Source: Gamsiella multidivaricata
Taxonomy: Eukaryota; Mortierellomycota; Mortierellomycetes; Mortierellales; Mortierellaceae
Reading direction: 5' to 3'
Assembly: GCF_025024155.1 (NCBI RefSeq)
Contig: NW_026251857.1
Location: forward strand, 1 to 36,740
DNA length: 36,740 nt
Shown piece by piece: positions 201 to 13,404 of the stretch. Position 1 is the first letter of the stretch. The number at the start of each line of letters is the position of its first letter. The position numbers were made by a program, and so were the translations under genes. The notes under the pieces were generated by a model. That model ran no database searches and was not told the DNA's origin. It saw only the letters and a program-made list of their open reading frames with translations.

Positions 201-869
201 TTGCCTGCCAGTCCAGATCTTGACAGAGCTGCAACGACCGCATACAACAAGAACAGCAAGAAGCAGCAAGAGCGTGATAGGATCCGCGCTGGAGCCGCCG
301 CTGCTGCACCGAAACCCATTCGATGGGTTTGTCCTAACAACGAGACCCACATCCGAGGTCTATCCTGTATTGCCGGGACCCGATCAATGCTCAAAGGTGA
401 CGAGTATTATGACCGCTCTCCGGATCTGACCTGGAGCATCAGCGATTTATGCCGTGGCATCACACCAGTCAGCCTTATCAAGGAGTGGGGCAGTCTATTT
501 ACCTCGCCATCGTCGATTGCGCGCCAGGTCATTCACAAGTTCGTCGGCTTTATTGAGGAGAAAGCTACGGAGCTGATCTGGAAACCACGCTGCAAGGCCA
601 CCATTGCTCGAGAGCGAGAATGGGGGATCACAGCCAAGATGAAACGAACTCCATACAAGGGACCGAGAGGGGACTGGAGTGATGGGTATGGATACATTAG
701 CGACGACGACCAATGTCCGTGTGGTGCATTACTCGCTGACCATGTAAATGGGAACTGCCCTGGCCCCGTGCTTGACCCAGACGCAGCGGATCGGACGCTG
801 CTGGATTGCCTGCAAGGGAGGAGGCGGTTGACAACCATGGAGGGGATGGGGAAGATACCCTTCTTGTAA
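201..869 (+). pseudogene. ORF fragment, possibly the C-terminal part of a retroelement-type protein
   Basis: An open frame of about 220 codons ends at TAA 867-869. It has no ATG at its 5' end: the first in-frame ATG is at 387, so the frame is either the last exon of a longer gene or a truncated copy. The product has an Ala-rich stretch, an IWKPRC motif around residues 126-131, a GPRGDW motif and a small Cys/His cluster (CPCG, ADH, GNCPG). IWKPRC-type motifs followed by Cys-rich tails recall C-termini of fungal non-LTR retroelement polyproteins, but no reverse transcriptase is visible, so this assignment is from memory and weak. The neighbourhood of repeats fits a retroelement remnant. It could equally be a lineage-specific gene. 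Confidence 0.4.
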
Positions 870-985
870 CAAGGTGTTTTCAGCTTTTAACACACTGATG
901 AGGTGTGGCAATTGTTGCGCAGGCCCTAGGGGCAGGCCCGGGGAATGTGACCTGTCTTTTGGCGACTGTGGATCGGTTCCGCTTT

Positions 986-1496
986 GGGGGTCGTTCCAGA
1001 TCTGAAGGGCAGTCCAAGAACACTCGCACAGTCCGGTTTCCAGAGGGCCATTCGCGTGGTACATCTTTTTAAAAACAGCCCCTGTCTATCCGGCGACACT
1101 GGATCGCTGTGAGGTAACAAGTCACGTCTCGTCTTTCTAACCTAGCAAGCTAGGCCCGCATTAAAAACTAAAGCTTGGCTTCTTCACAGACCGCCCCACA
1201 AAACCCATTCACTAAATCAGGGGCACTGTGCTTAGTCTGGTTGCCTCAACAGTTTTATAAACGTGCCGCTGAATCACGTTCACCCGATACGGTCTTAATG
1301 GTGTGCTGAGTCAACAGGGGTGGAACTACCTAGTGTTCCCGTCCTTTACTCCCTCGCTAACCATCTAAGTGATGTGTGACGAGCCAGACCTGGAACAGCT
1401 CTTATTTGTTGGCTGTCGTTTCGATTGCGGCTGTAGCCACAAGCCATCGAACAGTCTGAAGGGCAGTCAGATTCCATCAGACCGAGAACAACCCCC
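986..1496 (+). mobile_element. Repeat R copy 1: Harbinger-like MITE (uninterrupted, 511 bp)
   Basis: The unit starts GGGGGTCGTTCCAG and ends GAACAACCCCC, giving imperfect terminal inverted repeats (GGGGGTYGTTC, with matches continuing inward). The 14-mer TCTGAAGGGCAGTC occurs in direct orientation near both ends (1001-1014 and 1455-1468). A CCTAGC/GCTAGG hairpin lies near 1141. TTT flanks both ends, a possible 3-bp target duplication. The same sequence recurs almost unchanged at 10723-12419, where it is interrupted. It has no coding capacity. The G-rich ends, 3-bp duplication and nearby DDE_Tnp_4-type transposase suggest a non-autonomous PIF/Harbinger-type element, but that family call is inference. 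Confidence 0.6.
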
Positions 1497-1683
1497 TTTT
1501 TCGAAGCAAATACTGCAACAGGTGTAAGTATCTGGATATCCGCCTTGCACACCACTTGTTCGCGCCGATGGAAAAGACAACAGTAGCAATGTGCATTTTT
1601 TCAAGTTTATGTGAGCATCGCGAAGTATAAGCGCTAGAAAAACTCGACAGAGTCAAGTTTTCTGCTTGGTACTCGGGAGTCAA

Positions 1684-1820
1684 CCCCTCTCTTATTGACG
1701 ACACTCTCTTATTGGGCGGTGGGTAGTTTTTCAGATATCTGTTATTCTTAGATAGCAACTCGGAATTCTACCCACCGCGCAATAAGAGAGGGTTGGTAAG
1801 GTTGGTCATTAAGAGAGGGG
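1684..1820 (+). repeat. Left terminal module: palindrome with CCCTCTCTTATTG iterons
   Basis: Two iterons (1684-1697, 1701-1714) point rightwards into GCGGTGGGTAG. About 41 bp of AT-rich spacer follows, containing the perfect palindrome CAGATATCTG. Then come the complementary arm CTACCCACCGC (1768-1778) and two leftward-pointing iterons (1780-1792, 1807-1820). The layout of inverted binding-site-like boxes around an AT-rich centre resembles herpesvirus-type origins bound by UL9-like proteins. That resemblance, together with the helicase gene beside it, is the basis for suspecting an origin. Confidence 0.7.
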
Positions 1821-1892
1821 TAGTATTACTTATTTGTCTTGCTAACCTTTTTTTTAAAAAACAGCGGTTATACAAGGGTATACAACGGAACT

Positions 1893-4800
1893 TCATGGAT
1901 CCTGCCCTACACTTTCTATAAACATGTACCGGAAGTCCTTAGACCCTACGTTGGTGTAGTGCTCCAATTTATATCGTCCACTGCGTTTGTTGATAGCCTT
2001 GATTTTGACCCCAAGCACATCTCCCAATACGATGTTCAGGAACGACAACCTGTTTTTGAACACGTTCCATTGGCCGTGCGGCGGCTTCTTCCGTTCGAGT
2101 GTAATGCACATGTTGTCCATCTCAGGCATGATGCTATCCCATATTGTTTCGACCGCTGCTTTGAGGGCAGCCGCTGATACCACTTCGTCCGAAAACGGAT
2201 GTGCAAACCCACACGGATCCAGGATGTCCACGGCGTACTTGAGTCGGATGTACCGCGACTCCAACATTTTGTGCATTGCCTTAACTGGGAGCCCATTCTC
2301 CGCACAAAATCGTACCGAGCGGTACAGCTGCATCCGGGCATGGTCTAGTCTGGTTCTCATGGTGCCTCCATCGTCATTATCGTCAATCAATAGGTCACGT
2401 ATATTCTTGTATGTCTCTATCTCTTTCACGTTGTCGAGTGCCTTGACGAACTCAGGAGTGATGAGCTCTGGTCTTGTGATGTCGTATGCATCTTTTAGTA
2501 TATATTTGGATACAGCATGATGGTCTTCTGTGGTCAGGTCCGGGTTGTTGTCGAGCTCGGTGAAAGCTTCGTACGTGAGATCCCTTGCATTGGCAACTTG
2601 ATGGGCATGCTCGTCTTCAATCATGCGTTGCTGGTGTTCGGTGGTCACCGTCATCTCCTTCAGCTCTTTCTTTATAGACTTGATCTCATCCTTACTGGAG
2701 CCCTCGGCAAACCGCTGTACGCCCTTGATAATACATCCGGCGTCTGACATCTTGTGGTGTAGTAAATGAGAATCAGTTGGTTGTTCTTGCAAAGTTAATA
2801 TTAGATCACGGGGAAGAGCACCGCCCCCAGAATAAAAGAATAAACGGTCTGGTACCTGAACCAGAGTCTTCTTTCCACCAAAATCATTTGTATCACACAT
2901 TGTATTCGTCCAGATTGTCCGGATAACACCGCATCAACGACAGGTACTGACTACCACCGTCAGCAACCCATGCAACGAGATACAATCAACAGGAAATGCC
3001 GATCCTGATCATTCGCCACCTTTGCGCCGTCAATCGCTCTTATTTTAGACATTGTACTTGCCCCGCAGCGCTTCCCCGATTACCGATCGTCTCATTGAGC
3101 ATCCGTCATCGGCCCACCCTCGTGAAACGGCATTATAAAGGTACAACGGAGGCCTGATCAGCAACTATTGGCATACAACGACTCCAGAGGGGTGGACTTC
3201 ATTGTCACGACTCCTCACCTCATCGGACATCACAATATGCGAACTCCTTGCAACTACCCCAGTCATTCCCAAAGGAATATAGTCCTAGCTCGCACCATTT
3301 AGCTAAACAGATCCCCATATTTATTCCTTTCCATTTACGTCTAGTCTATTTTACCTTTGTGTTCTTACATTCCGATCTAAAGGAGGACCCTGCACCACGA
3401 ACCAGTAAGTGACCGAAGCACAGCCTTGCCGAAGTCCTATTCGCGTGGTAACTCCCGTTGTAAATAGAACTAATGGTAGAAGTTATAGAACCCGTTAGTA
3501 GACCCCCTACACCGCAATCTGCATAATGAACCGCTTTCTGAAGCCGTTCTTCGACAAATGTTTCTTGATGCGTGCGTTGATGTACAGGCGGCTGTAGAAG
3601 CTGTCTGGTAGTATGTAGCCTCTTCCACGTACATACTGCAACCCTAGACCTGATACCCCATGCACATGGTTCTTCTGATTGCAGATCCAATCCTGGAGAG
3701 CACAAGTTGTAGTGGGAAGTTTATTTGTTGCGCCGTCGACATGGACCATGTATGTCTTTGATTTGACGTGACGGACACGCCGCAACATCTGTCTGCATGT
3801 CTCCACTGTGACACCGCTTTGCGTGCTGAAGAAGCCTACCACATATTCAACATGATTCTCGATATTACAGTCGATGCCGACACTGATAGTTGGTGTGTGG
3901 ATGAAATAATCGACGTCGGCGATAACTGTTGATATTCTCGGCTACATAGCGCTTCTCACTCTCAGGTATGTTCCTTGTTATACACATCCCACGGTAGCCT
4001 TTGCTCGCGAGGTCTCTGTGTATCGCCATGGATCGCTTGGCGCTGAGAGTGCTCGATATCCAAATTCGATTCCCTTTACACATCAGATCACATATCTCGA
4101 CCTGGAGCTGTGGTTTAGTCTCGTACATCATTACGTTATCGCCATCCTGTGGTTTCGCCATATTGTGGATAACTTGCACGTCATCGCGCAGACTTTTCAC
4201 GAGTTGCACATCCTCATTCGTAAGATCAGCGTCGAAACAGACGACCCGGGCCACGCCCTCGATCAATGCATTCAGAGCGACGTTGTTCATGTCATGCTTG
4301 TCTCCCATAGTAGATTTGCTAGTCATCTGGTCAAAGAGCGAGCTAACTTCATCGAGGATCAAGATGACATCGTTGTCTAGATAGAAATCCAAGTCAAGTC
4401 TCCACAATGACTCTGCTTGGATCATAATTCTATCCTCTGTAATAATCGGCTTGCGAATATCTTGATAGTTTGGGATGTCGTGGCGCTGTCCATTGGCGTT
4501 TGCCAACGACTTTTTGCAGGTGACGCAAACGATTTGGCGTCCTGGATTTGCCTTGACGAGCGCATCAATATACATTGTTTTTCCTGTTCCTGTGGCAGAA
4601 CAAAACATCAGGCTTGGTAACTTTTCCCTGGCTGCGTTGAGCTTGCCATTACCGAGTTTCAACGACGGAAGTCCAGGTGCCAGCAGTTCGTGTTTGATGT
4701 ATTTTTCGATGTATGTGATTGCTCCATCCAGAGGAACGGACGGTCGTTGTTTACATGCCATGGCACAAAGCTCGATTACGGCACTAAAGCCAAGCTTATC

Positions 4801-5868
4801 CAAGAGTACACCTACTTTTCTAGCGGACCTGTGACAGTGTAGGTGAATTTCGCCATTCGTCCACAGCTGTAGATACGCATGGTCGCTTGTATGGCAACGC
4901 TTGCATATATCACAATGACCCGAACATTTGCGTTTCAGCTTAAAGATCATGCCGCCTTCATAGTGCACTGCATACTGGTCCGCGTGCTTATACTTCAAGT
5001 ATCTGTTACGTACAGAATCAACAATATGAGTAGGTAAAGCGATTTGTTGCTGGGTTGAAAATGCCGCGCTGGTCTGCTCGGCTTGCCGAATGCGAGGGCG
5101 ATTTTTCGAGGGTGTGTTGGCTATAGGCATGTCGACTTCAATGCTGCCAGGACGGAGGTTGGTGATATAGAACTCTGCATCCTCTGCATTCACAGATGCC
5201 TCATGCCATTCAGCACGCACAAAACGTCGGTGCATCTGATTGCGCTTGCGACTTCCGAGGATCCGGATGTTCCTGTTCTTGCTGTAGACACTCATGTCGA
5301 TGTAGCTGCAAAGTCCACTGTTCGGCCCTTGATCCTGAGCTGACCTCGCACGCTCAAAGTCGAGCATGAATGCATGCATGTGCTTGTTGTTGTTCTTGAA
5401 GGCGTACGTTGGTATGATGATGTGCAGCGACACCTTCGAGCCGGACGATGCACTCAAGACTCGACACTGGTCAATTGTCACTGGGTATTGCGGTGCAAAT
5501 TCATTGCGCGCAATAAGGAACGCCGCAAACATCTATTGCTCCCGCTGCTCACTCGATTCAGTATCGTCTTGGACTGATTCGAGACTCCAATCAACATCAT
5601 AGTACTCCGAACAGGCGTGGCCATCCCTGAGAAGCTCCCCGAAGAACCGGTCCTTGGCTGGTATGTCGGCATATGCTTGCAGAAATGCAGACAAGTTTTT
5701 GTAGCTCGCATGTTCGTAGAACGGGCTTCCTTTCTTGGATACCCCCGCCATGTACGCCACAAAGAACGTATTGGAGTTCTTGTCGGCTTGGGCAAAGGAT
5801 CTCGCTTGCGGACCCAAGGTCTGGCCCTTTTCAGTAGCAAAGTATACGGATCCGAATTTACTGGACAT
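1893..5868 (-). pseudogene. PrimPol / Zn-finger / replication-origin-binding helicase, disrupted
   Basis: Transcribed leftwards from an ATG at 5868 (an in-frame ATG at 5943 is an alternative) to TGA at 1893-1895. Order of domains: an archaeo-eukaryotic primase with EYYDVDW (catalytic DxD), SGSKVSLHIIIP (motif II, SxH) and DMSVYSKNRNIRILGSRK (motif III); a Cys/His cluster (CSGHCDICKRCH ... HCH) like the UL52-type zinc finger; then an SF2 helicase with Walker A SATGTGKT, Walker B ILILDEVSS and a late motif TPTISVGID. The C-terminal ITPEFVKALDN region is typical of fungal and mimivirus origin-binding-like proteins. Three lesions break it: an in-frame TAG at 5533-5535 directly followed by ATG, a one-base frame change near 3927, and a 764-bp insertion at 2753-3516. 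It would prime and unwind DNA for replication of the element. It is decayed unless recoded. Confidence 0.8.
2753..3516. mobile_element. MITE-like insertion inside the helicase gene
   Basis: The insert is bounded by TGTGGTGTAG (2753-2762) and CTACACCGCA (3507-3516), which are 10-bp inverted repeats with one mismatch. It is flanked on both sides by ATCT (2749-2752 and 3517-3520), a 4-bp target duplication. Removing the insert plus one ATCT joins the two helicase frames without a shift and gives the local residues RFIMQMSDAGC. The insert has no recognisable gene. The first ~49 residues of the downstream frame (from 2900) are insert-derived. A reading as a long GT-AG intron was considered and is less economical. 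Confidence 0.7.
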
Positions 5869-6199
5869 TTGGCTGTTTGTGTCGTCGATTCCTGATAAAT
5901 GGTGTGTAGTTTGTGTTATATATGTTAGGAAGCAACAGATCATTTTATCTGTCAGTTTCTGCCCACTGCTTTTGAGCTGCGCAAGCTTGTGACTTGCATT
6001 TTTTATGACTGCGTGAAATTCTGGACATTCACAAGCGCACTACGTCTCCATCCGCACACAACACCGAACCTTTTTTTGACGCTGGTGCTCTCTCTGCTCT
6101 TTACTCCCTCCCTCCGCTCGCACACACCCCACATTCACAGGCGCATTGCTTCTCCATTTACACGTGCCTCGTTTCTCCATTACCAAAAAACATCCATCC
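5869..6199. promoter_or_regulatory. Divergent promoter between helicase and Crinkler genes
   Basis: This 331-bp gap separates two genes read in opposite directions and so probably holds both promoters. The Crinkler side is rich in pyrimidines and short CT/CA runs (about 6060-6190), as is common upstream of fungal start codons. No convincing TATA box or operator was picked out. Confidence 0.4.
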
Positions 6200-7933
6200 A
6201 TGGCGGCAAATACACTCTCCCTATTCTGTCTCGTTAGCGGCGACCCCTCATCGAGTGCGTTTCCCGTGAAGATATCTTCAGACGAGACCGTCGGCCAGCT
6301 CAAGGACGCAATCAAGGCCAAACAAACACCCGCCTTCGACGACATTACCGCCAAGGACCTGGTGCTCTGGCGTGTCACGATTCCTGTCGACGCCGACGAC
6401 GATGACGATGAACAGCCCATCGTACTTGACAACGTGTCTGAGAAAAAGAAACTCAAGGCAACCACCGACCTTTCTGACGTCTTTGAAGAGGCACCGCCGA
6501 AGAAAACTATCCACATCTTCATCGAGCGACCCAAAGGTACATCCCGGCTAAACCCAGTTTTACCGGTGGCCAGAATCCCATATTTATATTGAGAAAGACT
6601 GGCATTCTGGCCACGCCCCTGTGACCCGTGCGCGCTCCAAGCCTGCTTACTAATCAACTGGATTTTATTTAAAAAAATAAAATAAAAAAAAATAGCTACG
6701 AGCACGCCACACACTCTCGACCTTCATCCCGAGGTGGCTGCATTACGCAAACAGTTGTCCGAGCTGGAACAGCTCAACGTGGATCTGAGAAGCACTTCCA
6801 TTTGTAAGTGAGAATGGTCCCGGCGAGCTGAATTACGAAGTCCTTGAAACCAGCAAGCTAATTTTATTTGTTTTTTTTCGGTAGCAATGGCAATCATGGA
6901 CAAAAGAAGTGGAGGAAACAGGAAAATTTGCCAATACGTGGCCGACACAGTGACATCAACTCTTGAGGAACTGCGACAACTCCTTCGGCCGCATTTTGAG
7001 CAGTTTGAAGGAGACGACTACGTACAAATTTATTTGTATCAACCCGGGTGTGCAAAACCTGTTTTGGTTAGCCACGACGACGTGCTCCGCTCTTGTTTGA
7101 AAATAGCCAAGGACAATGGCCACAAGAACTTCACCATATCTTTGGATAGCCCGGCCAAGAAGTTCTCGTCGTACACCTGGAAGGATGCACAGATCCAGTA
7201 TGGAGTCCGAGAGTTTGAACTCATGCCAGCGTTCGATATTCAGCCAAAGTCATTGCTGGAAGACGAGAAAACGATATTGAAGCACGTCGTTGAGGACTGT
7301 ATTTTCAAGAACAAGGCGTACCTGCTTGGTCCGGGTGCAAGCGAGGCAACGAAGTCATCGGTTGTCGATACATTCATGGTTGGAGCCATGCAATCCTACG
7401 GTTCCGAGATGTTCCTGGCACAACAACGGCCAATGAGCGGTATGCGTGGTCACGGGGCCGTCGACTTTGCTGTTGTCGACCGAGTACATCAGTCGCAAGT
7501 TCTTGGTGTTACGGAAGTCAAGAAGGAGGATTATGCGCAAGGCCTAGCTCAAAATATGGCGGAACTCGATGTGGCCGTGCAACAAAAGAAACGAAAACGA
7601 ATTGACGAAGTGGACGAGGACAGCGGAGAGAGAATACCAGCTCGCTTCAAGTCGTATGGGATTGTGACGGACTCATTCAAGTGGACACTTGTGGAATGTA
7701 CATTGGACGAGGGCGACGTCTTGTCGTTTCGAGTGAAGGACATCCCAGGCGTTCTTGACTTGAAGCAGACCAAGAAGGAAGACGTGGAAAAGGACTGTGA
7801 GAAAGTCTTTAGCTATGTTCTTGCCCTGTACCAGTTGATGAAGGCTGAGATTGTGAACAGGAGCGCTTATGGCAGTCCTTCGTCTGACACCCCACCAAGC
7901 AAGAGAGTGGCGACTGGTTCACCTCGTTCATAG
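6200..7933 (+). CDS. Crinkler (CRN) protein with PD-(D/E)XK nuclease-like C-terminus
   Basis: Three exons are supported: 6200-6536, 6696-6803 and 6885-7933 (GT-AG introns, the second with GTAAGT). Together they encode 497 residues in a continuous frame. The N-terminus is a CRN ubiquitin-like header: LSLFCLVSGDPSSSAFPVKI near the start, a DETVGQLKDAIKAK helix, then KKTIHIFIERPKG closing the header around residue 110. A short helical linker follows (AALRKQLSELEQLNVDL). The C-terminal domain shows D342 (GHGAVDFAVV), E359-x-K361 (LGVTEVKKED) and a following Q (GLAQN), the active-site pattern of PD-(D/E)XK nucleases. A basic KKRKRIDE stretch follows and may direct nuclear entry. CRN proteins with such nuclease domains are known in fungi and oomycetes (CR-toxins of Zhang and colleagues). 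The role, whether effector, conflict or element maintenance, is not determined. The reading frame is intact, unlike its neighbour. Confidence 0.85.
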
Positions 7934-8287
7934 TGGTTAGTGCCTTCCGACGGAAATACTCTGTATTTTGCTCATATAAACTGTTGCTGTTGCTACACCT
8001 GTTGATTTATTTTTATCGGGAAGGACGTGTTCCCAGTACAATACCAGCCTTAATTTGCAACCCCTCCTTATTTGACTGGACCAGGTGGATCAGGATTGGT
8101 GCATCTTTTTAAAAAAAGCAATCACAATCTCATCTGTCGCATCTCATCTCATCTCTCCCATGTCCACCCCGATGCTGCGGCACCCATGCCCTACAAATGG
8201 GCTTGCCAACCCCATTTCATTCCCTTCATCCTCTCCTTCCTTCCTTCACCCATTCACCCAGTCCTTTTTTTCCTGCTTTCCTCCACC
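7934..8287. other. Gap between Crinkler and DUF3627-like genes
   Basis: No gene is seen. The first part is the 3' flank of the Crinkler gene. The last 150 bp is CT-rich (TTCCTTCC, CACCCATTCACC) and runs up to the next ATG, consistent with a fungal promoter and leader. Confidence 0.4.
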
Positions 8288-8995
8288 ATGACCGTCAGTA
8301 TGTCCTGCATTTCGAGCATAACACACCGACCTGCATGCGATTGACCTTTGCAACCGCGTACTGAAGCACACCTGCCAACCATTGTTCCTCCATTCGTAGA
8401 CAAGCCGAAGTCAGAGGAGTCTATTGAGGCACTACGCAGGAAGCTGGAGGCTGTTTCACTGGACCTCAGGAACACACAGCGGGACCTCCTGGAGGCTAAC
8501 GACAGCCTTGCGTCAACACAGGAAGAGCTTGAGGACACTGAGACCAAGCTCGAAGAGACTCAACTCGAGCTGCAGAACACTCGTGATGCTCTTGCCAACA
8601 CCGAGCGTGCGCGCCAGGCAGCCAACCTCGACCGTGTCCTCGCGCGGCCAGCCAGACAGCAGGAGGTCTTTGTTGTCTTGAAGTTCCGGTCGCCCCAGCC
8701 ATTGCCCGTCGGTGGATACCAACTTTTCACGCGGCAGCAAAAGGATGTTGAGCGCAGCTTGAAGCGATTTATTGCTGACAATCCGGAGCTCGATGCCGTT
8801 GTGATGGACAAGTTGCGATTCGATCGCTCTCCTCGAGGGCACCGTGTCTACCAGCGCATCAAGGACGACAAGGATACACCGATCGAGTTCAGTCGCCGCA
8901 ACTTCGCGCTCAAGAAAGGCCACTCCGAGGACGACATGATTGAGTATATCGCCAGTGTCTTCAACACTCATACTCAGGACCAGGAGAACATGTAG
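8288..8995 (+). CDS. Coiled-coil protein with DUF3627-like C-terminal domain
   Basis: Exon 1 is only 10 nt (8288-8297). It is followed by an intron with a consensus GTATGT donor (8298-8399), then exon 2 at 8400-8995, giving 201 residues that start MTVNKPKSEES. If the splice is wrong, the frame still opens at 8348. Residues ~10-80 form a heptad-rich coiled coil (LEAVSLDLRNTQRDL, TQEELEDTETKLEETQLEL). The C-terminal ~100 residues have the pattern of DUF3627, a domain found in iridovirus and other large-DNA-virus proteins, often after KilA-N or MSV199: GGYQLFTRQQKDVERSLKR, then RGHRVYQRIKDDKD and PIEFSRRNFAL. No KilA-N domain is present. Function is unknown. A link to DNA binding or oligomerisation is only inferred from the viral relatives. 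It is intact and lies co-oriented downstream of the Crinkler gene. Confidence 0.6.
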
Positions 8996-9139
8996 CTCTA
9001 GGCTCGCCAGCTCTCTAGCATTTTAAAAAAATCTAGGATTCAATGAAGATTGACTATTAAAAAGGTGCCATTTTTCACCTGGTATATTTAAATAGCACAG
9101 GCATTCACCAAGAGAATGGCATGGTATATCTCTGACGGA

Positions 9140-9288
9140 CTCTCCTATTGACAACCCTCTCTTATTGGCGACCCTCTCTTATTGCGCGGTGGGTAGAATT
9201 CCGAGTCGCTATCTAAGAATAACAGATATCTGAAAAACTACCCACCACGCAATAAGAGAGGGTTCAATACTCAGTCAAATAAAGAGGG
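9140..9288 (-). repeat. Right terminal module: inverted copy of the palindrome/iteron block
   Basis: Iterons at 9140-9150 (degenerate), 9155-9167 and 9172-9184 point rightwards into GCGGTGGGTAG. After a 41-bp centre containing CAGATATCTG, the arm CTACCCACC leads into leftward iterons at 9250-9262 and 9276-9288 (degenerate). The block is the reverse complement of the left module. The iteron count differs from the left end, so the arrays have expanded or decayed independently. Confidence 0.7.
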
Positions 9289-9403
9289 TTGAAAAACAGA
9301 GAGGGCTGAACGTGCTAAATGTACGGATGGCCATGTTTGCATGTCGGCCCACCGTGCTACTAATAAATGAATCGACCCAATGCTTGTTTGAAGCAACGGA
9401 ATC

Positions 9404-10714
9404 ATGGATGAGGCTCTTGAATACGATGCCATCGTGCAGAATCACTGGAAGTTCTTACACAAGGACTGGCCTATCATCGACAGAGTGAAGCATCACCGCA
9501 CAGAGATCGCTGTTGTGAATAACATTGACAGTATCAAGACGTTTGTGCTGAATCGCCTGGGTGTTATACCTGTATCCTTCTTCTTGACCGTGATCTTTGG
9601 CACTAGAGCATACTCTTGCCCGTACAGGAATGTCGAGAAGGGCGTCATGCTGCTTTATGTGCTTGTGAAAGGGGTTTCCTTGAGTGATATGGCACAATAC
9701 ATGCCGAAGACATCCTTCCACACAATCCACAAGGAGTTCTACATGTATAATCTTTCCGCACTAAGCCGCCTTTTAACCACGATGTTGTCTGAGATGTTCT
9801 CTACATTGAAGTCGCGTCATCTCGCTGCCGAAAGAAACCCTGACCCCTTCAAGAACGTGACACTCAACTTGGATGGCCATGATTCTAGGATCATCTATGT
9901 GAACGCAGACAAAGCTAGTCTGTATTCATACAAGCTTAAGAAGTCTGGGTTCCGTGTGCAGGTGTGCACAGACATGAATAACATGGTCTATTTTGTGTCT
10001 GCACCCGCGCCATGCCGTGACTACAACGATGGGACCATGCTCCTCCGAATGGGCATCCAAAACAAGATCCACAAGCTGGACTGTGTTGCGTTGGATAACG
10101 GATACACTCTGTTTATCGGCAAGCTACTAGAAAGTGCGGACGAGCTCCAGTACGAGAACTTCTGCTACCCAATCCGCAAAAGGCGCGGAATTGCACTGAC
10201 TGAGGAAGAGAAGGCTTACAATGAGATCTTCGGGAGCTTCCGTTCTCGTATTGAGAGCTACTTCGGGGAGATGCAGTCGACGTTCACAAAGTTCAGTCAT
10301 ACAGTTGTGAACAAGGTGGCAGAGAAAGAGATGTTTGGCGTTCAGTACAATCTGGCATGCCTCCTGATGAACATCAAAAGGTTCGTTGCACTCAGGAATA
10401 TCTCCACTGAACAACATCACACTTTGTGGCTTCAGGACGGCTTTGACTACTCCAACAAGGCAGAGCAAGAGACCATGTACACTCTTCCGAACATCTAAGT
10501 TAAGCTGCCACAGAGCAAGGATTTGCTTGCCACACGGAAGGCGTTCTTCGACATGGCTATTTCCATTCACACGGTGGCCGATGATGACATGGAAGATGGA
10601 AACGAAGTGAGGATCACTGGTCGCCGCGGAGAAGGCAAAGAGAGAGAGTATCAGATCCTTCAGGACAAGATGAAACTCGTTGAGTACTTAAAATCCGCTC
10701 AAAGCTTTGATTAG
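9404..10714 (+). pseudogene. Harbinger/DDE_Tnp_4-type transposase with one in-frame stop
   Basis: The frame opens at ATG 9404 and runs 364 codons to TAA at 10496-10498. It then continues in the same frame for 71 more codons to TAG 10712-10714, with protein-like sequence (KDLLATRKAFFDMAISIH). The DDE triad can be placed at D157 or D160 (NLDGHDSRI), D231 (LDCVALDNGYT) and E284 (FRSRIESYFGEM), typical of DDE superfamily endonucleases of the Tnp_4/Harbinger group. The N-terminal half is helical with an HTH-like segment (VSLSDMAQYMPKTSFHTIHKE). The stop lies after the catalytic core, so a truncated but active protein is conceivable. It lies 8 bp before repeat R2, and R may be its non-autonomous substrate. 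No terminal repeats enclosing the transposase itself were found. Confidence 0.75.
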
Positions 10715-11203
10715 CTCCATAAGGGGGTCGTTCCAGCTCTGAAGGGCAGTCCAAGAACACTCGCACAGTCCGGTTTCCAGAGGGCCATTCGCGTGGTACA
10801 TTTTTTTAAAAACAGCCCCTGTCTATCCGGCGACACTGGATCGCTGTGAGGTAACAAGTCACGTCTCGTCTTTCTAACCTAGCAAGCTAGGCCCGCATTA
10901 AAAACTAAAGCTTGGCTTCTTCACAGACCGCCCCACATGAGATATTTTTGGGATTCAGAATAAGTGAGAAAGAGATGTGGCTCCACACACCACACCGATT
11001 AGGTATTTATTTGTATTAAATATAATAGTGAGCTGGAGGTACACTTGTTAAACTAAATATACAGTGAACTCTGGTGAAATATGCGACAGCTCCCCCTCCC
11101 CTTGGAGAACGAGGCACGAGTTCCAGGATTTTGTATGGCATATGAGGCAGAGTGAGTTGTACTGCAGAGATTTTGAATCGCGTAAATTAGGTTGATTGTG
11201 CAT

Positions 11204-11206
<3 letters not shown>

Positions 11207-11235
<29 letters not shown>
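11207..11235 (+). repeat. Poly(T) tract, 29 nt
   Basis: An uninterrupted T run lies upstream of the ORF in the R2 insert. It could be the reverse of a retroposed poly(A) tail or a promoter dA:dT element. Confidence 0.8.
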
Positions 11236-11351
11236 CGTGACATCATACAGTCAAGATCATCTGATCAAAATTGTGAGATCATCTGATGTCCCATGGACCA
11301 ATGAGATGATGCGGATGGGAATGAGTGATGGATGGATGTCCAAGGTGAGAG

Positions 11352-12047
11352 ATGAACGAGGTTGATTCCTCATTCTTTCTTTCTCATTCACCTGCCCAAC
11401 ACAAACACTTTCCTACAAATTTTCACAATATTTTTCATTATGTCCCATCTTGTCCTATCATCGACTTGCGTGAAGCTAGGCGTGAAGCTAAGCGCCTTGC
11501 TGCGCTGAAAAGACAGCAGGAGGAGGAATCCACTTCGACGGCGAAGCCAGTGGGGGTATTGTCGGAGGAGACGGTACCTTTTACACAGGTACCGAAGGAA
11601 GATTGGTCTCCGACTTTTCCTTCGGACGTGGCACTAGGCAAGCGTGCATTGGCGAAGCCTGAATATGTGCCAGCATCACAACCTGACGAGGAGGAGGATG
11701 ATTTGCCCCAGGGTTAGGGTGCCACAGGCGAGGATTATGAGACTCAGCCCCTCGAGGAAGATGATGATTCGCCACAGGATCAGGGTGGCACGGACGAGGA
11801 TTATGAGGCTCAACTCATCGCAGCTCATCTGGAAATCGAGGAACTTCGCAGTACCCTGAAACGTGAGCGGGATATAATTTACAAGGATGAAGGCACTCAG
11901 GTGGATCGAAAGACAGCAGAGCAGGGGGTTCAAGTTGAAGCGGAGGACGATAGCAGGAAAGAGCAACGTCCTCGTAAGAGGCGTAGAAAGGCCAGGACTA
12001 ACATTATAGTCCTCAATTTTGATAAGCAGACTAATTACTTTAGTTAG
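11352..12047 (+). pseudogene. Acidic-repeat protein ORF with a nonsense codon
   Basis: An ATG at 11352 opens a frame of 121 codons to TAG 11715-11717. The same frame resumes and stays open to TAG 12045-12047 (231 residues in all, including the break). The product starts with an Arg/Lys/Ala helix (REARREAKRLAALKRQQEEE). It then carries two tandem acidic segments of similar sequence (DDLPQG-stop-GATGEDYETQ and DDSPQDQGGTDEDYEAQ), a short coiled coil, and a basic KRRRKAR stretch that could be a nuclear localisation signal. Aligning the two repeats puts the stop where the second copy has Gln, so a CAG-to-TAG mutation is likely. The family is not recognised. It is not visibly a Myb/SANT protein of the kind that accompanies Harbinger transposases. 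Confidence 0.45.
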
Positions 12048-12419
12048 CTGAATGCAAATAAAGGATTCTAGCCATTCTATTTGTCGCAGAACCATTCGAA
12101 TGTAATGCTCATTGTATACCACAAAACCCATTCACTAAATCAGGGGCACTGTGCTTAGTCTGGTTGCCTCAACAGTTTTATAAACGTGCCGCTGAATCAC
12201 GTTCACCCGATACGGTCTTAATGGTGTGCTGAGTCAACAGGGGTGGAACTACCTAGTGTTCCCGTCCTTTACTCCCTCGCTAACCATCTAAGTGATGTGT
12301 GACGAGCCAGACCTGGAACAGCTCTTATTTGTTGGCTGTCGTTTCGATTGCGGCTGTAGCCACAAGCCATCGAACAGTCTGAAGGGCAGTCAGAGTCCAT
12401 CAGACCGAGAACAACCCCC

Positions 12420-13404
12420 TTTGGTGGTGAGGACAGCGATAGTAGATCTTTGCTAGTTAGTCTGATAGATTCGCAGAGTCAATTGACTCGAGAGACAAGT
12501 TGTTATAAAAAAAAAAAAAAAAAAAAAAAGCTCGTTCCTTAAGTGCAAGGATTTATGCTGTCTCGTGCTCATGGGGATTTATGTTAATAAAAAAAAAATC
12601 GTTCCTTGGTCAATACTCTTTTTGCAATATACCATTCTACACGCCTTCTGGTCAAGATATTTCAAGTTTTACTTTTATTGATACGCCTTCTTGGTTTGGT
12701 GTTGGCTCATTCTCAATCGTGTTCATTCCTTCCGGTCACCCTTGACTTCCATGACGCTTGCAATTGTTCACTATTGAACTATCTCAAGACTGCAGCATAC
12801 ACGGGATAGTTCTTGCGCAAAGACTTTCCTTGCTTCATAATTCTTTATCATTCAGTTCTATTTTTTTTGAGGCTCAAAGGCCTACTACCGGATACCATTA
12901 AGGATAGATGTTCATTATTTTGCTTGTAAGGATTGTAAAAAGTAGAGATTTCGCCGCGGAAGACGACAATTCACTCCATTTGGATCGAAGGAAAAGAGAT
13001 ATTGCGGTAGTCTTTGATCTTGCGACTGCCAGCCAAAGCGTTCGAGACAGGGCAGCAAGACCCAGAATTAGTCCCAAAACATATGTGCTGGTAAGACGCG
13101 TCGAAAGTTGAAAAAACCAATTTTCCGTGACTGGTGCGGATTTAAAAGCACAAGGGGACTGTCTCAGGGGAGGTTACCTCGGGCATCTTGGCTGGGACCC
13201 AATTCTTCGTCTTGAAAGTATTATTTGCTCCAGGAAGAGCAAATTGACACTCTTCCTGGAATCAATTGCACAGTCACCCTCCAACTTGACGCGACAACGA
13301 ACACAGCCTTTCCTTTTTCTTTTCTTCGACAAGAGACTTATCTCTGTGGACTCTTCAGGACAGGACTTAGCAGGAGGTTTATCATTACTCGACAACTATA
13401 CAGG
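12420..13404. other. Intergenic stretch with poly(A) tract, no gene seen
   Basis: About 1 kb separates the mobile island from SEH1. It has a 23-nt poly(A) at 12507-12529 followed by CTCGTTCCTT, and a shorter A run near 12589 followed by TCGTTCCTT, so a small A-tract/CGTTCCTT unit is duplicated. A TATTATTTGCTCCAGGAAGAGCAAA hairpin-like segment lies near 13218-13250. The SEH1 promoter should lie in the last few hundred bases. Open frames here have no recognisable protein signature. Confidence 0.4.

What the first reader, a model, noticed from the sequence alone, without database searches (positions are those of the whole stretch)
1684..9288. Replicon-like element: PrimPol-helicase plus Crinkler nuclease between inverted origin-like ends
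Seen: two near-identical modules in inverted orientation enclose a PrimPol/Zn-finger/SF2 helicase gene, a CRN gene with a PD-(D/E)XK pattern and a DUF3627-like gene. Known: Herpes_ori_bp-type helicases and DUF3627 occur in large DNA viruses, and CRN C-terminal domains have been traced to transposons. Inference: this is one mobile or viral-like unit that replicates through its own PrimPol-helicase and carries CRN cargo. No such unit with these ends is known to me.
Basis: partly seen in the sequence, partly recalled or inferred. Interest (0 to 1): 0.88.

Follow-up and report, generated by a model that had tools for sequence, protein, structure and literature searches.

The report
Self-replicating transposon carrying a Crinkler nuclease
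This stretch of a fungal genome holds a decayed copy of a transposon that carries a transposase gene, a giant-virus-like primase-helicase gene predicted to copy the element's DNA, and a Crinkler gene whose product is predicted to cut DNA, so such elements would be vehicles that spread Crinkler effectors.

Summary
The inverted modules are real but internal, not ends. A 3-bp duplication (TTT) flanks it, and the joined flanks align to a related site elsewhere in the genome that lacks the unit. Host: very probably Gamsiella multidivaricata. The gene order recurs in a ~98%-identical copy (C99, cut at its left end by the contig edge) and a copy 36-74% identical in protein (C105); partial linkages occur in other Mortierellomycota. 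A palindrome sits just before the transposase in 6 of 8 copies, with three different arm sequences. In two divergent pairs the copies part at the end of the terminal segment. Models of relatives match HSV UL9 and viral PrimPol-helicases, and a PD-(D/E)XK nuclease. 'DUF3627' was not confirmed. The window's helicase and transposase genes are broken. Shown: one inserted unit, recurring gene set, terminal direct repeats (in this copy). Inferred: self-replication from the palindromes, circle or concatemer, Crinkler as cargo.

The parts
983..985 (.). left target-site duplication TTT
   Evidence: GGTTCCGC-TTT | unit | TTT-GGTGG; related empty site has 3 bases (ACT) there, placed by eye
986..1496 (+). 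left 511-bp terminal segment (direct copy), own short inverted termini GGGGGTCGTTCC / GGGGGTTGTTCT
1497..1683 (.). 187-bp spacer between terminal segment and module L; relatives not searched for
   Evidence: sequence
1684..1830 (.). module L: palindrome (23-nt arms, 41-nt AT-rich centre) with CTCTCTTATTG repeats
1893..5943 (-). PrimPol-Zn-SF2 (UL9/Herpes_ori_bp-type) helicase gene, broken here (in-frame stop, frameshift, insertion); 1090-aa frame up to the contig edge in C99
   Evidence: models of relative P0003:
2753..3516 (.). 764-bp secondary insertion inside the helicase gene (3-bp duplication ATC, own inverted termini), absent from C99
6200..7933 (+). Crinkler gene: ubiquitin-like header (6200-6535 region), linker, PB1-like and PD-(D/E)XK C-terminus (6887-7930); introns inferred, header and C-terminus are one protein in annotated relatives
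   Evidence: model of relative P0140:
9138..9288 (.). module R: palindrome (26-nt arms, 41-nt AT-rich centre) with three 17-bp-spaced CTCTCYTATTG repeats at 9140, 9157, 9174
9404..10714 (+). DDE_Tnp_4 transposase gene, stopped early at 10498 here; 436 aa in C99
10723..10937 (+). right 511-bp terminal segment, first part
10938..12118 (.). 1181-bp secondary insertion in the right terminal segment (5-bp duplication CCACA)
12119..12419 (+). right 511-bp terminal segment, second part; right end of the unit
12420..12422 (.). right target-site duplication TTT

Best explanation
The window carries an inserted DNA transposon (986-12419, 3-bp target duplication) that encodes a DDE_Tnp_4 transposase, a PrimPol-UL9-type helicase that likely replicates it from palindromic origin-like modules, and a Crinkler protein predicted to be a PD-(D/E)XK nuclease that likely travels as cargo. 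Proposed cycle: the helicase's C-terminal part would bind the palindromes (module R before the transposase, module L at the helicase's 3' end), unwind them as UL9 does at oriS, and the PrimPol domain would prime copying of an excised circle or head-to-tail concatemer. The transposase would cut at the outer inverted termini of two successive 511-bp segments and insert '511 - unit - 511' with a 3-bp duplication, which leaves direct terminal repeats; recombination between them, or movement of the segment alone, would leave the solitary 511-bp copies seen elsewhere. Shown: unit limits in the window, target duplication, related empty site, gene content and order, right-end position in two families, recurring palindrome position, broken state of this copy. 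Inferred: replication, circle or concatemer, nuclease activity, cargo role.
Confidence: 0.68

Rival explanations
1. An ordinary PIF/IS5-like cut-and-paste transposon that picked up a viral-type helicase and a Crinkler gene as passengers; it does not replicate itself and the palindromes are promoters or transposase sites.
For: DDE_Tnp_4, 3-bp duplications, short inverted termini and short solitary copies are what such transposons show (pattern recalled). Transposase relatives are far more numerous (228 at E<=0.001) than helicase relatives (17). Replication is not shown.
Against: The 1000-aa helicase stays with the transposase across families (44% and 54-59% protein identity) and probably in L. 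hyalina. Helicase C99-C105 gives dN 0.48, dS 2.3, near saturation. Palindromes keep position but not sequence.
Confidence: 0.2
2. A fragment of an endogenous giant virus or other DNA virus, into which transposons later inserted.
For: The best named structural matches of the helicase are giant-virus origin-binding helicases.
Against: No capsid, packaging or DNA polymerase match among the proteins scanned (not every small ORF was scanned); the one IMG/VR scan gave 4 loci at 21-24% identity over the helicase core; the whole unit has one 3-bp target duplication and a related empty site.
Confidence: 0.06
3. Campbell-type integration: a circular replicon with one 511-bp segment recombined into a solitary 511-bp copy already in the chromosome.
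For: Predicts the same direct repeats, solitary copies, and a duplication outside the pair; the left segment alone is also flanked by TTT.
Against: The two window segments are closer to each other (3 mismatches) than to C99's (6-7), expected for one recent source but not decisive.
Confidence: 0.2
4. One reading: 1684-9288 bounded by the inverted modules.
For: The modules do bracket the three genes.
Against: Transposase outside them recurs with the other genes; insertion limits at 986 and 12419.
Confidence: 0.02

Closest known systems
Teratorn (piggyBac-herpesvirus fusion of teleost fish)
   Same: A cut-and-paste transposase joined to herpes-type replication genes; a published model has the viral genome cut out of a concatemer between two copies of the transposon (PMC10175614, abstract and passages seen), which is the model used here for '511 - unit - 511'.
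   Different: Teratorn is 180 kb with piggyBac and a herpesvirus gene set (same passages); this unit is about 9.5 kb without its two insertions, has DDE_Tnp_4, no capsid or packaging match among the proteins scanned, one PrimPol-helicase and a Crinkler gene.
PIF/Harbinger and IS5-like transposons (DDE_Tnp_4)
   Same: Transposase family, short inverted termini, 3-bp duplications.
   Different: No Myb/SANT match found; carries a replication-type protein and a Crinkler gene; ends are 511-bp direct segments.
HSV UL9 / giant-virus PrimPol-origin-binding helicases
   Same: SF2 core and part of the C-terminal half superpose on UL9 (model of P0003); PrimPol-helicase architecture also in giant viruses such as Clandestinovirus.
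   Different: Sits in a fungal transposon; origin binding not tested.
Polintons/Mavericks (self-synthesizing transposons)
   Same: A eukaryotic transposon that would copy itself with its own enzyme.
   Different: No family B polymerase, retroviral-type integrase or capsid match among the proteins scanned; PrimPol-UL9 enzyme instead.
Crinkler/CR effectors ('Transposons to toxins', Zhang et al. 2016; that paper is not held, known here through passages of the review PMC5289972)
   Same: Ubiquitin-like header plus REase-fold C-terminus; the review reports that NTPase-REase domains are linked with transposable elements in prokaryotes.
   Different: Here a complete Crinkler gene lies inside a defined eukaryotic transposon with its ends and target duplication.

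Membership tests
PIF/Harbinger-type transposon | DDE_Tnp_4 transposase | tested here: met
   E 2.1e-8, 34.4 bits over cut-off 24.8; the three DDE patterns found in all 6 copies examined, C3 altered just after the first
PIF/Harbinger-type transposon | 3-bp target duplication, usually TWA (recalled) | tested here: inconclusive
   3 bp: TTT (window), TAA, TAC, TAT; only TAA fits TWA; C110 and C104 show none
PIF/Harbinger-type transposon | second Myb/SANT-like gene (recalled) | tested here: not met
   no Myb/SANT match among the proteins of the four genes in Pfam at E<=1
Teratorn | piggyBac-type transposase | tested here: not met
   transposase is DDE_Tnp_4
Teratorn | herpesvirus structural and packaging genes | tested here: not met
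   no such match among the proteins of the four genes; small ORFs not scanned
Polinton/Maverick | protein-primed PolB, retroviral-like integrase | tested here: not met
   no such Pfam match among the proteins of the four genes
Starship | tyrosine recombinase captain | tested here: not met
   no such Pfam match among the proteins of the four genes
Crinkler/CR protein | PF20147 header | tested here: met
   100.7 bits, cut-off 24.6
Crinkler/CR protein | toxin-type C-terminus (here PD-(D/E)XK) | tested here: met
Crinkler/CR protein | secretion and action on another cell | not testable with these tools
   sequence only
UL9-type origin-binding helicase | Herpes_ori_bp SF2 helicase | tested here: met
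UL9-type origin-binding helicase | binds a palindromic origin | not testable with these tools
   palindromes present beside the gene set
AEP PrimPol | catalytic motifs DxD/E, SxH, VYxxNRxxR and Zn knuckle (recalled) | tested here: met
   D116, S172, H174, D216, V219, Y220, R224 invariant in 14 sequences; CDIC..H..C in C99, the knuckle region is missing from three of the 14 rows
AEP PrimPol | fold of a solved PrimPol | tested here: inconclusive
   profile best matches pox D5 0.012 and human PrimPol 0.057; model poorly resolved there
DUF3627 | Pfam DUF3627 profile match | tested here: inconclusive
   no match at E<=1 or at E<=10 in 4 members; HMMER filters drop weak matches

The most novel reading that the evidence does not exclude
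A new class of eukaryotic mobile element: a PrimPol-UL9 replicon that makes circles or head-to-tail concatemers from paired palindromic origins and inserts them by a DDE transposase acting on two successive copies of its own 511-bp terminal mini-transposon, and that serves as the vehicle on which Crinkler nuclease effectors are carried, swapped and spread through the Mortierellomycota.
Probability: 0.42. Interest if true: 0.9.

Novelty: new variant of a known kind. Interest (0 to 1): 0.8.

Why it matters
Crinkler C-termini have been linked to transposons on sequence grounds (review passages); here a whole Crinkler gene sits inside a transposon with defined ends, so the link can be tested on real elements. 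A review (PMC6431247, passage seen) foresaw that a nucleic acid-primed polymerase combined with a primase and a suitable integrase could make new transposons; this unit pairs a predicted primase-polymerase-helicase with a DDE transposase in about 9.5 kb. If it replicates itself, it would be another case, after Teratorn, of a virus-type replicon joined to a cut-and-paste transposase, in fungi and with no capsid gene found.

Tried and rejected
Modules as ends: rejected, see above. 511-bp repeats as stray MITEs: rejected as the only explanation because such a segment directly follows the transposase stop in three divergent families (C56/C99, C43, C105) and marks the right end in two pairs, though solitary copies show that it also occurs alone. 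Viral relatives in IMG/VR: one scan with two peptide patterns, 4 distant loci, not followed. The Crinkler model's Foldseek list was filled by ubiquitin-like folds, so a second look was used for the nuclease part. PrimPol fold could not be tested with the model. A flip of the transposase segment between inverted modules was considered for L. exigua (P0015, P0029) but rests on two gene models only. dN/dS for the Crinkler C-terminus C99-C56 rests on 5 changes and says nothing. Nine searches of the open PMC library listed no title or abstract start that describes such an element; only the listings were seen, in several searches 10 to 20 of many papers, and subscription papers and preprints are mostly not held.

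Full report
What is in the window. The window is a whole contig (C56, 36,740 bp) of a 37.48-Mb genome in 180 contigs. The host is very probably Gamsiella multidivaricata (Mortierellomycota): contig C31 is 78,648 bp, the same length as the contig that carries the G. multidivaricata protein P0064, and a G. multidivaricata protein is 99% identical to the Crinkler C-terminus of the sister copy (P0138). The two inverted modules are real: 93-nt arms, 96% complementary, 7,377 nt apart. A genome search with module L finds that sequence at three places: both modules here and one on contig C99 (counts of repeats are lower bounds).

The gene set is larger than reported. Left to right: module L; a helicase gene on the minus strand; a Crinkler gene; a coiled-coil gene; module R; a DDE_Tnp_4 transposase. 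In sister copy C99 (97-99% identical in its main pieces) the helicase is one open frame of 1090 aa up to the contig edge, and the transposase has 436 aa. In the window the helicase carries an in-frame stop, a frameshift and a 764-bp insertion, and the transposase stops early. This copy is therefore decayed.

Recurring order. In C105 all four genes stand in the same order at lower identity (protein: helicase 45-49%, Crinkler header 48%, Crinkler C-terminus 36%, transposase 54%, coiled-coil protein 74%). C3 has helicase and transposase without a Crinkler match; C112 has helicase and Crinkler header, and no transposase match; C114 has a helicase piece, Crinkler headers and transposase; C31 has the helicase C-terminus and transposase tail to tail; C43 has the coiled-coil gene and, 6 kb away, the transposase. 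C114, C31 and C43 were fetched because of the transposase, so they are not an unbiased sample. Of the 5 helicase places found genome-wide with a 555-aa piece, 4 have a transposase within 10 kb and 4 a Crinkler header within 5 kb. Chance expectation is about 0.02 and 0.09 places (my arithmetic from 9 transposase places and 65 header matches in 37.5 Mb). At most 6 of the 65 header matches lie near a helicase piece that I found, so most Crinkler genes are not now in such units.

Other species. Of the 17 helicase relatives found, 15 are named after Mortierellomycota fungi (classification recalled) and 2 are unnamed JGI proteins (only the 7,995 candidates sharing most words were scored). In Linnemannia hyalina helicase KI688_005279 and transposase KI688_005276 both list a contig of 1,261,107 bp; in Dissophora globulifera Crinkler BGZ98_001034 and transposase BGZ98_001035 both list one of 9,804 bp (nearness is inferred from locus tags and contig lengths). 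Gene models also join coiled-coil protein and transposase (P0026), Crinkler header and transposase (P0022), and, in L. exigua, helicase C-terminus and transposase on the same strand (P0015, P0029). The L. exigua order differs from the window.

Ends and insertion. A 511-bp segment with short inverted termini (GGGGGTCGTTCC / GGGGGTTGTTCT) stands at 986-1496 and, interrupted by a 1181-bp insertion with a 5-bp duplication, at 10723-12419, in direct orientation. The two copies differ by 3 mismatches and one indel, and from C99's copy by 6 and 7 mismatches. C56 and C99 part within 1-2 bases of the right end of this segment, and so do C105a and C105b at the end of a ~514-bp segment of different sequence in the same place after the transposase stop. 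Solitary copies were read at both edges in five places: C24, C164 and C134 show 3-bp duplications (TAA, TAC, TAT), C110 and C104 do not. A sixth, short match (C172) was not read. The bases outside 986 and 12419 are TTT on both sides; the left segment alone is also followed by TTT, so this pair alone does not settle the order of events. When the flanks are joined, they align over 678 columns (66% with gaps; 71% and 81% in the two main pieces) to C99 9055-9647 reversed, which has no insertion and 3 bases at the junction (the 3 bases placed by eye). So the whole of 986-12419, both terminal segments included, was added to a repeat-family sequence that also exists without it. Limits: the empty site is a paralogue, and the left segment is seen in this copy only, because the C99 and C3 contigs begin inside the helicase gene and C105 is truncated there.

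Palindromes. Just upstream of the transposase start a palindrome occurs in 6 of 8 copies (C56, C99, C43, C105a, C105b, C3); 0 to 3 of 200 dinucleotide shuffles reach the observed score. Its centre is 64-80% AT in five of them and 46% in C105b. C56/C99, C43/C105a and C105b/C3 have three different arm sequences. C114 and C31 have none there (27 and 104 of 200 shuffles reach the score), and the palindromes after their transposase are not significant (13 and 21 of 100). CTCTCTTATTG-type repeats stand beside the palindromes in C56 and C99 and, in the opposite orientation, in C43 and C105a. The layout, inverted sites around an AT-rich centre, recalls the herpesvirus oriS bound by UL9 (recalled, not tested).

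Selection. Transposase C99-C43 dN/dS 0.11, C105-C3 0.12; coiled-coil protein 0.30 (C56-C105) and about 0.5 (against C43); helicase C99-C105 0.20 and Crinkler C-terminus 0.30, both with dS above 2 and unreliable; C56-C99 pairs give 0.6-1.2, most from few changes. The transposase was under constraint; for the others the evidence is weaker.

How it likely works. I take the Teratorn authors' concatemer model (PMC10175614, passages): a transposon sitting in a replicating genome lets the transposase cut one genome out of a concatemer with a transposon copy at each end. Here the 511-bp segment would be that transposon remnant, kept next to its transposase, and the PrimPol-UL9 protein would copy the circle from the palindromes. 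The Campbell route, a circle recombining into a solitary segment, fits the same data. Self-replication is inferred from protein type, linkage and palindromes; no replication product was looked for.

Novelty. Nine searches of the open PMC library listed no such element (listings only). Its parts are known kinds; the combination with these ends is new to me. I class it as a new variant of a known kind (virus-type replicon joined to a cut-and-paste transposase), with a real chance that it deserves a class of its own.

Noticed in passing
window 10938-12118: 1181-bp insertion in the right terminal segment with a 5-bp duplication (CCACA), perhaps a solitary LTR or similar; its first 152 bp are 97% identical to a stretch in C112.
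   Followed up: partly
window 2753-3516: 764-bp insertion in the helicase gene with 3-bp duplication ATC and inverted termini TTGTGGTGTAG/TTGCGGTGTAG; a 92% copy lies beside the decayed helicase of C112.
   Followed up: partly
window 6200-6535 vs C99 3603-3938: The Crinkler header differs by 17% in protein between C56 and C99 while other genes of the two copies are 95-99% identical: perhaps a patch exchanged by recombination or gene conversion.
   Followed up: no
L044 311-2045 (C112) and L048 5635-6813 (C114): Crinkler genes beside or near the decayed units in C112 and C114 have different C-termini with a P-loop pattern, so the Crinkler cargo seems to vary.
   Followed up: partly
L041 842-1300 minus strand (C105): ORF with a Zn-ribbon like that of TnpB/Fanzor (PF07282, E 0.009, below cut-off) just beyond the right end of the C105 unit; a similar piece in C112 (L044 3009-3281).
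   Followed up: partly
P0015 and P0029 (Linnemannia exigua): Two gene models join the helicase C-terminus to a transposase on the same strand, with two different transposase subfamilies: the transposase segment seems flipped compared with C31.
   Followed up: no
P0032 and many others: Many of the 120 listed transposase relatives carry a chromodomain (PF00385), C-terminal in P0032; P0018 shows a sub-threshold remnant.
   Followed up: no
window 387-869; C99 9231-9647: Repeat family with a short ORF (no Pfam match) that served as target of the insertion; C99's own unit sits beside another copy of it.
   Followed up: partly
L007 start (C99) and L038 start (C3): Both contigs begin inside the helicase gene not far from where module L would be, so the assembly seems to break at the left end of the unit.
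   Followed up: no
C105 267202-268915 and 273459-275381: A second, partial transposase with its own palindrome and terminal segment lies about 5 kb beyond the C105 unit in the same orientation.
   Followed up: partly
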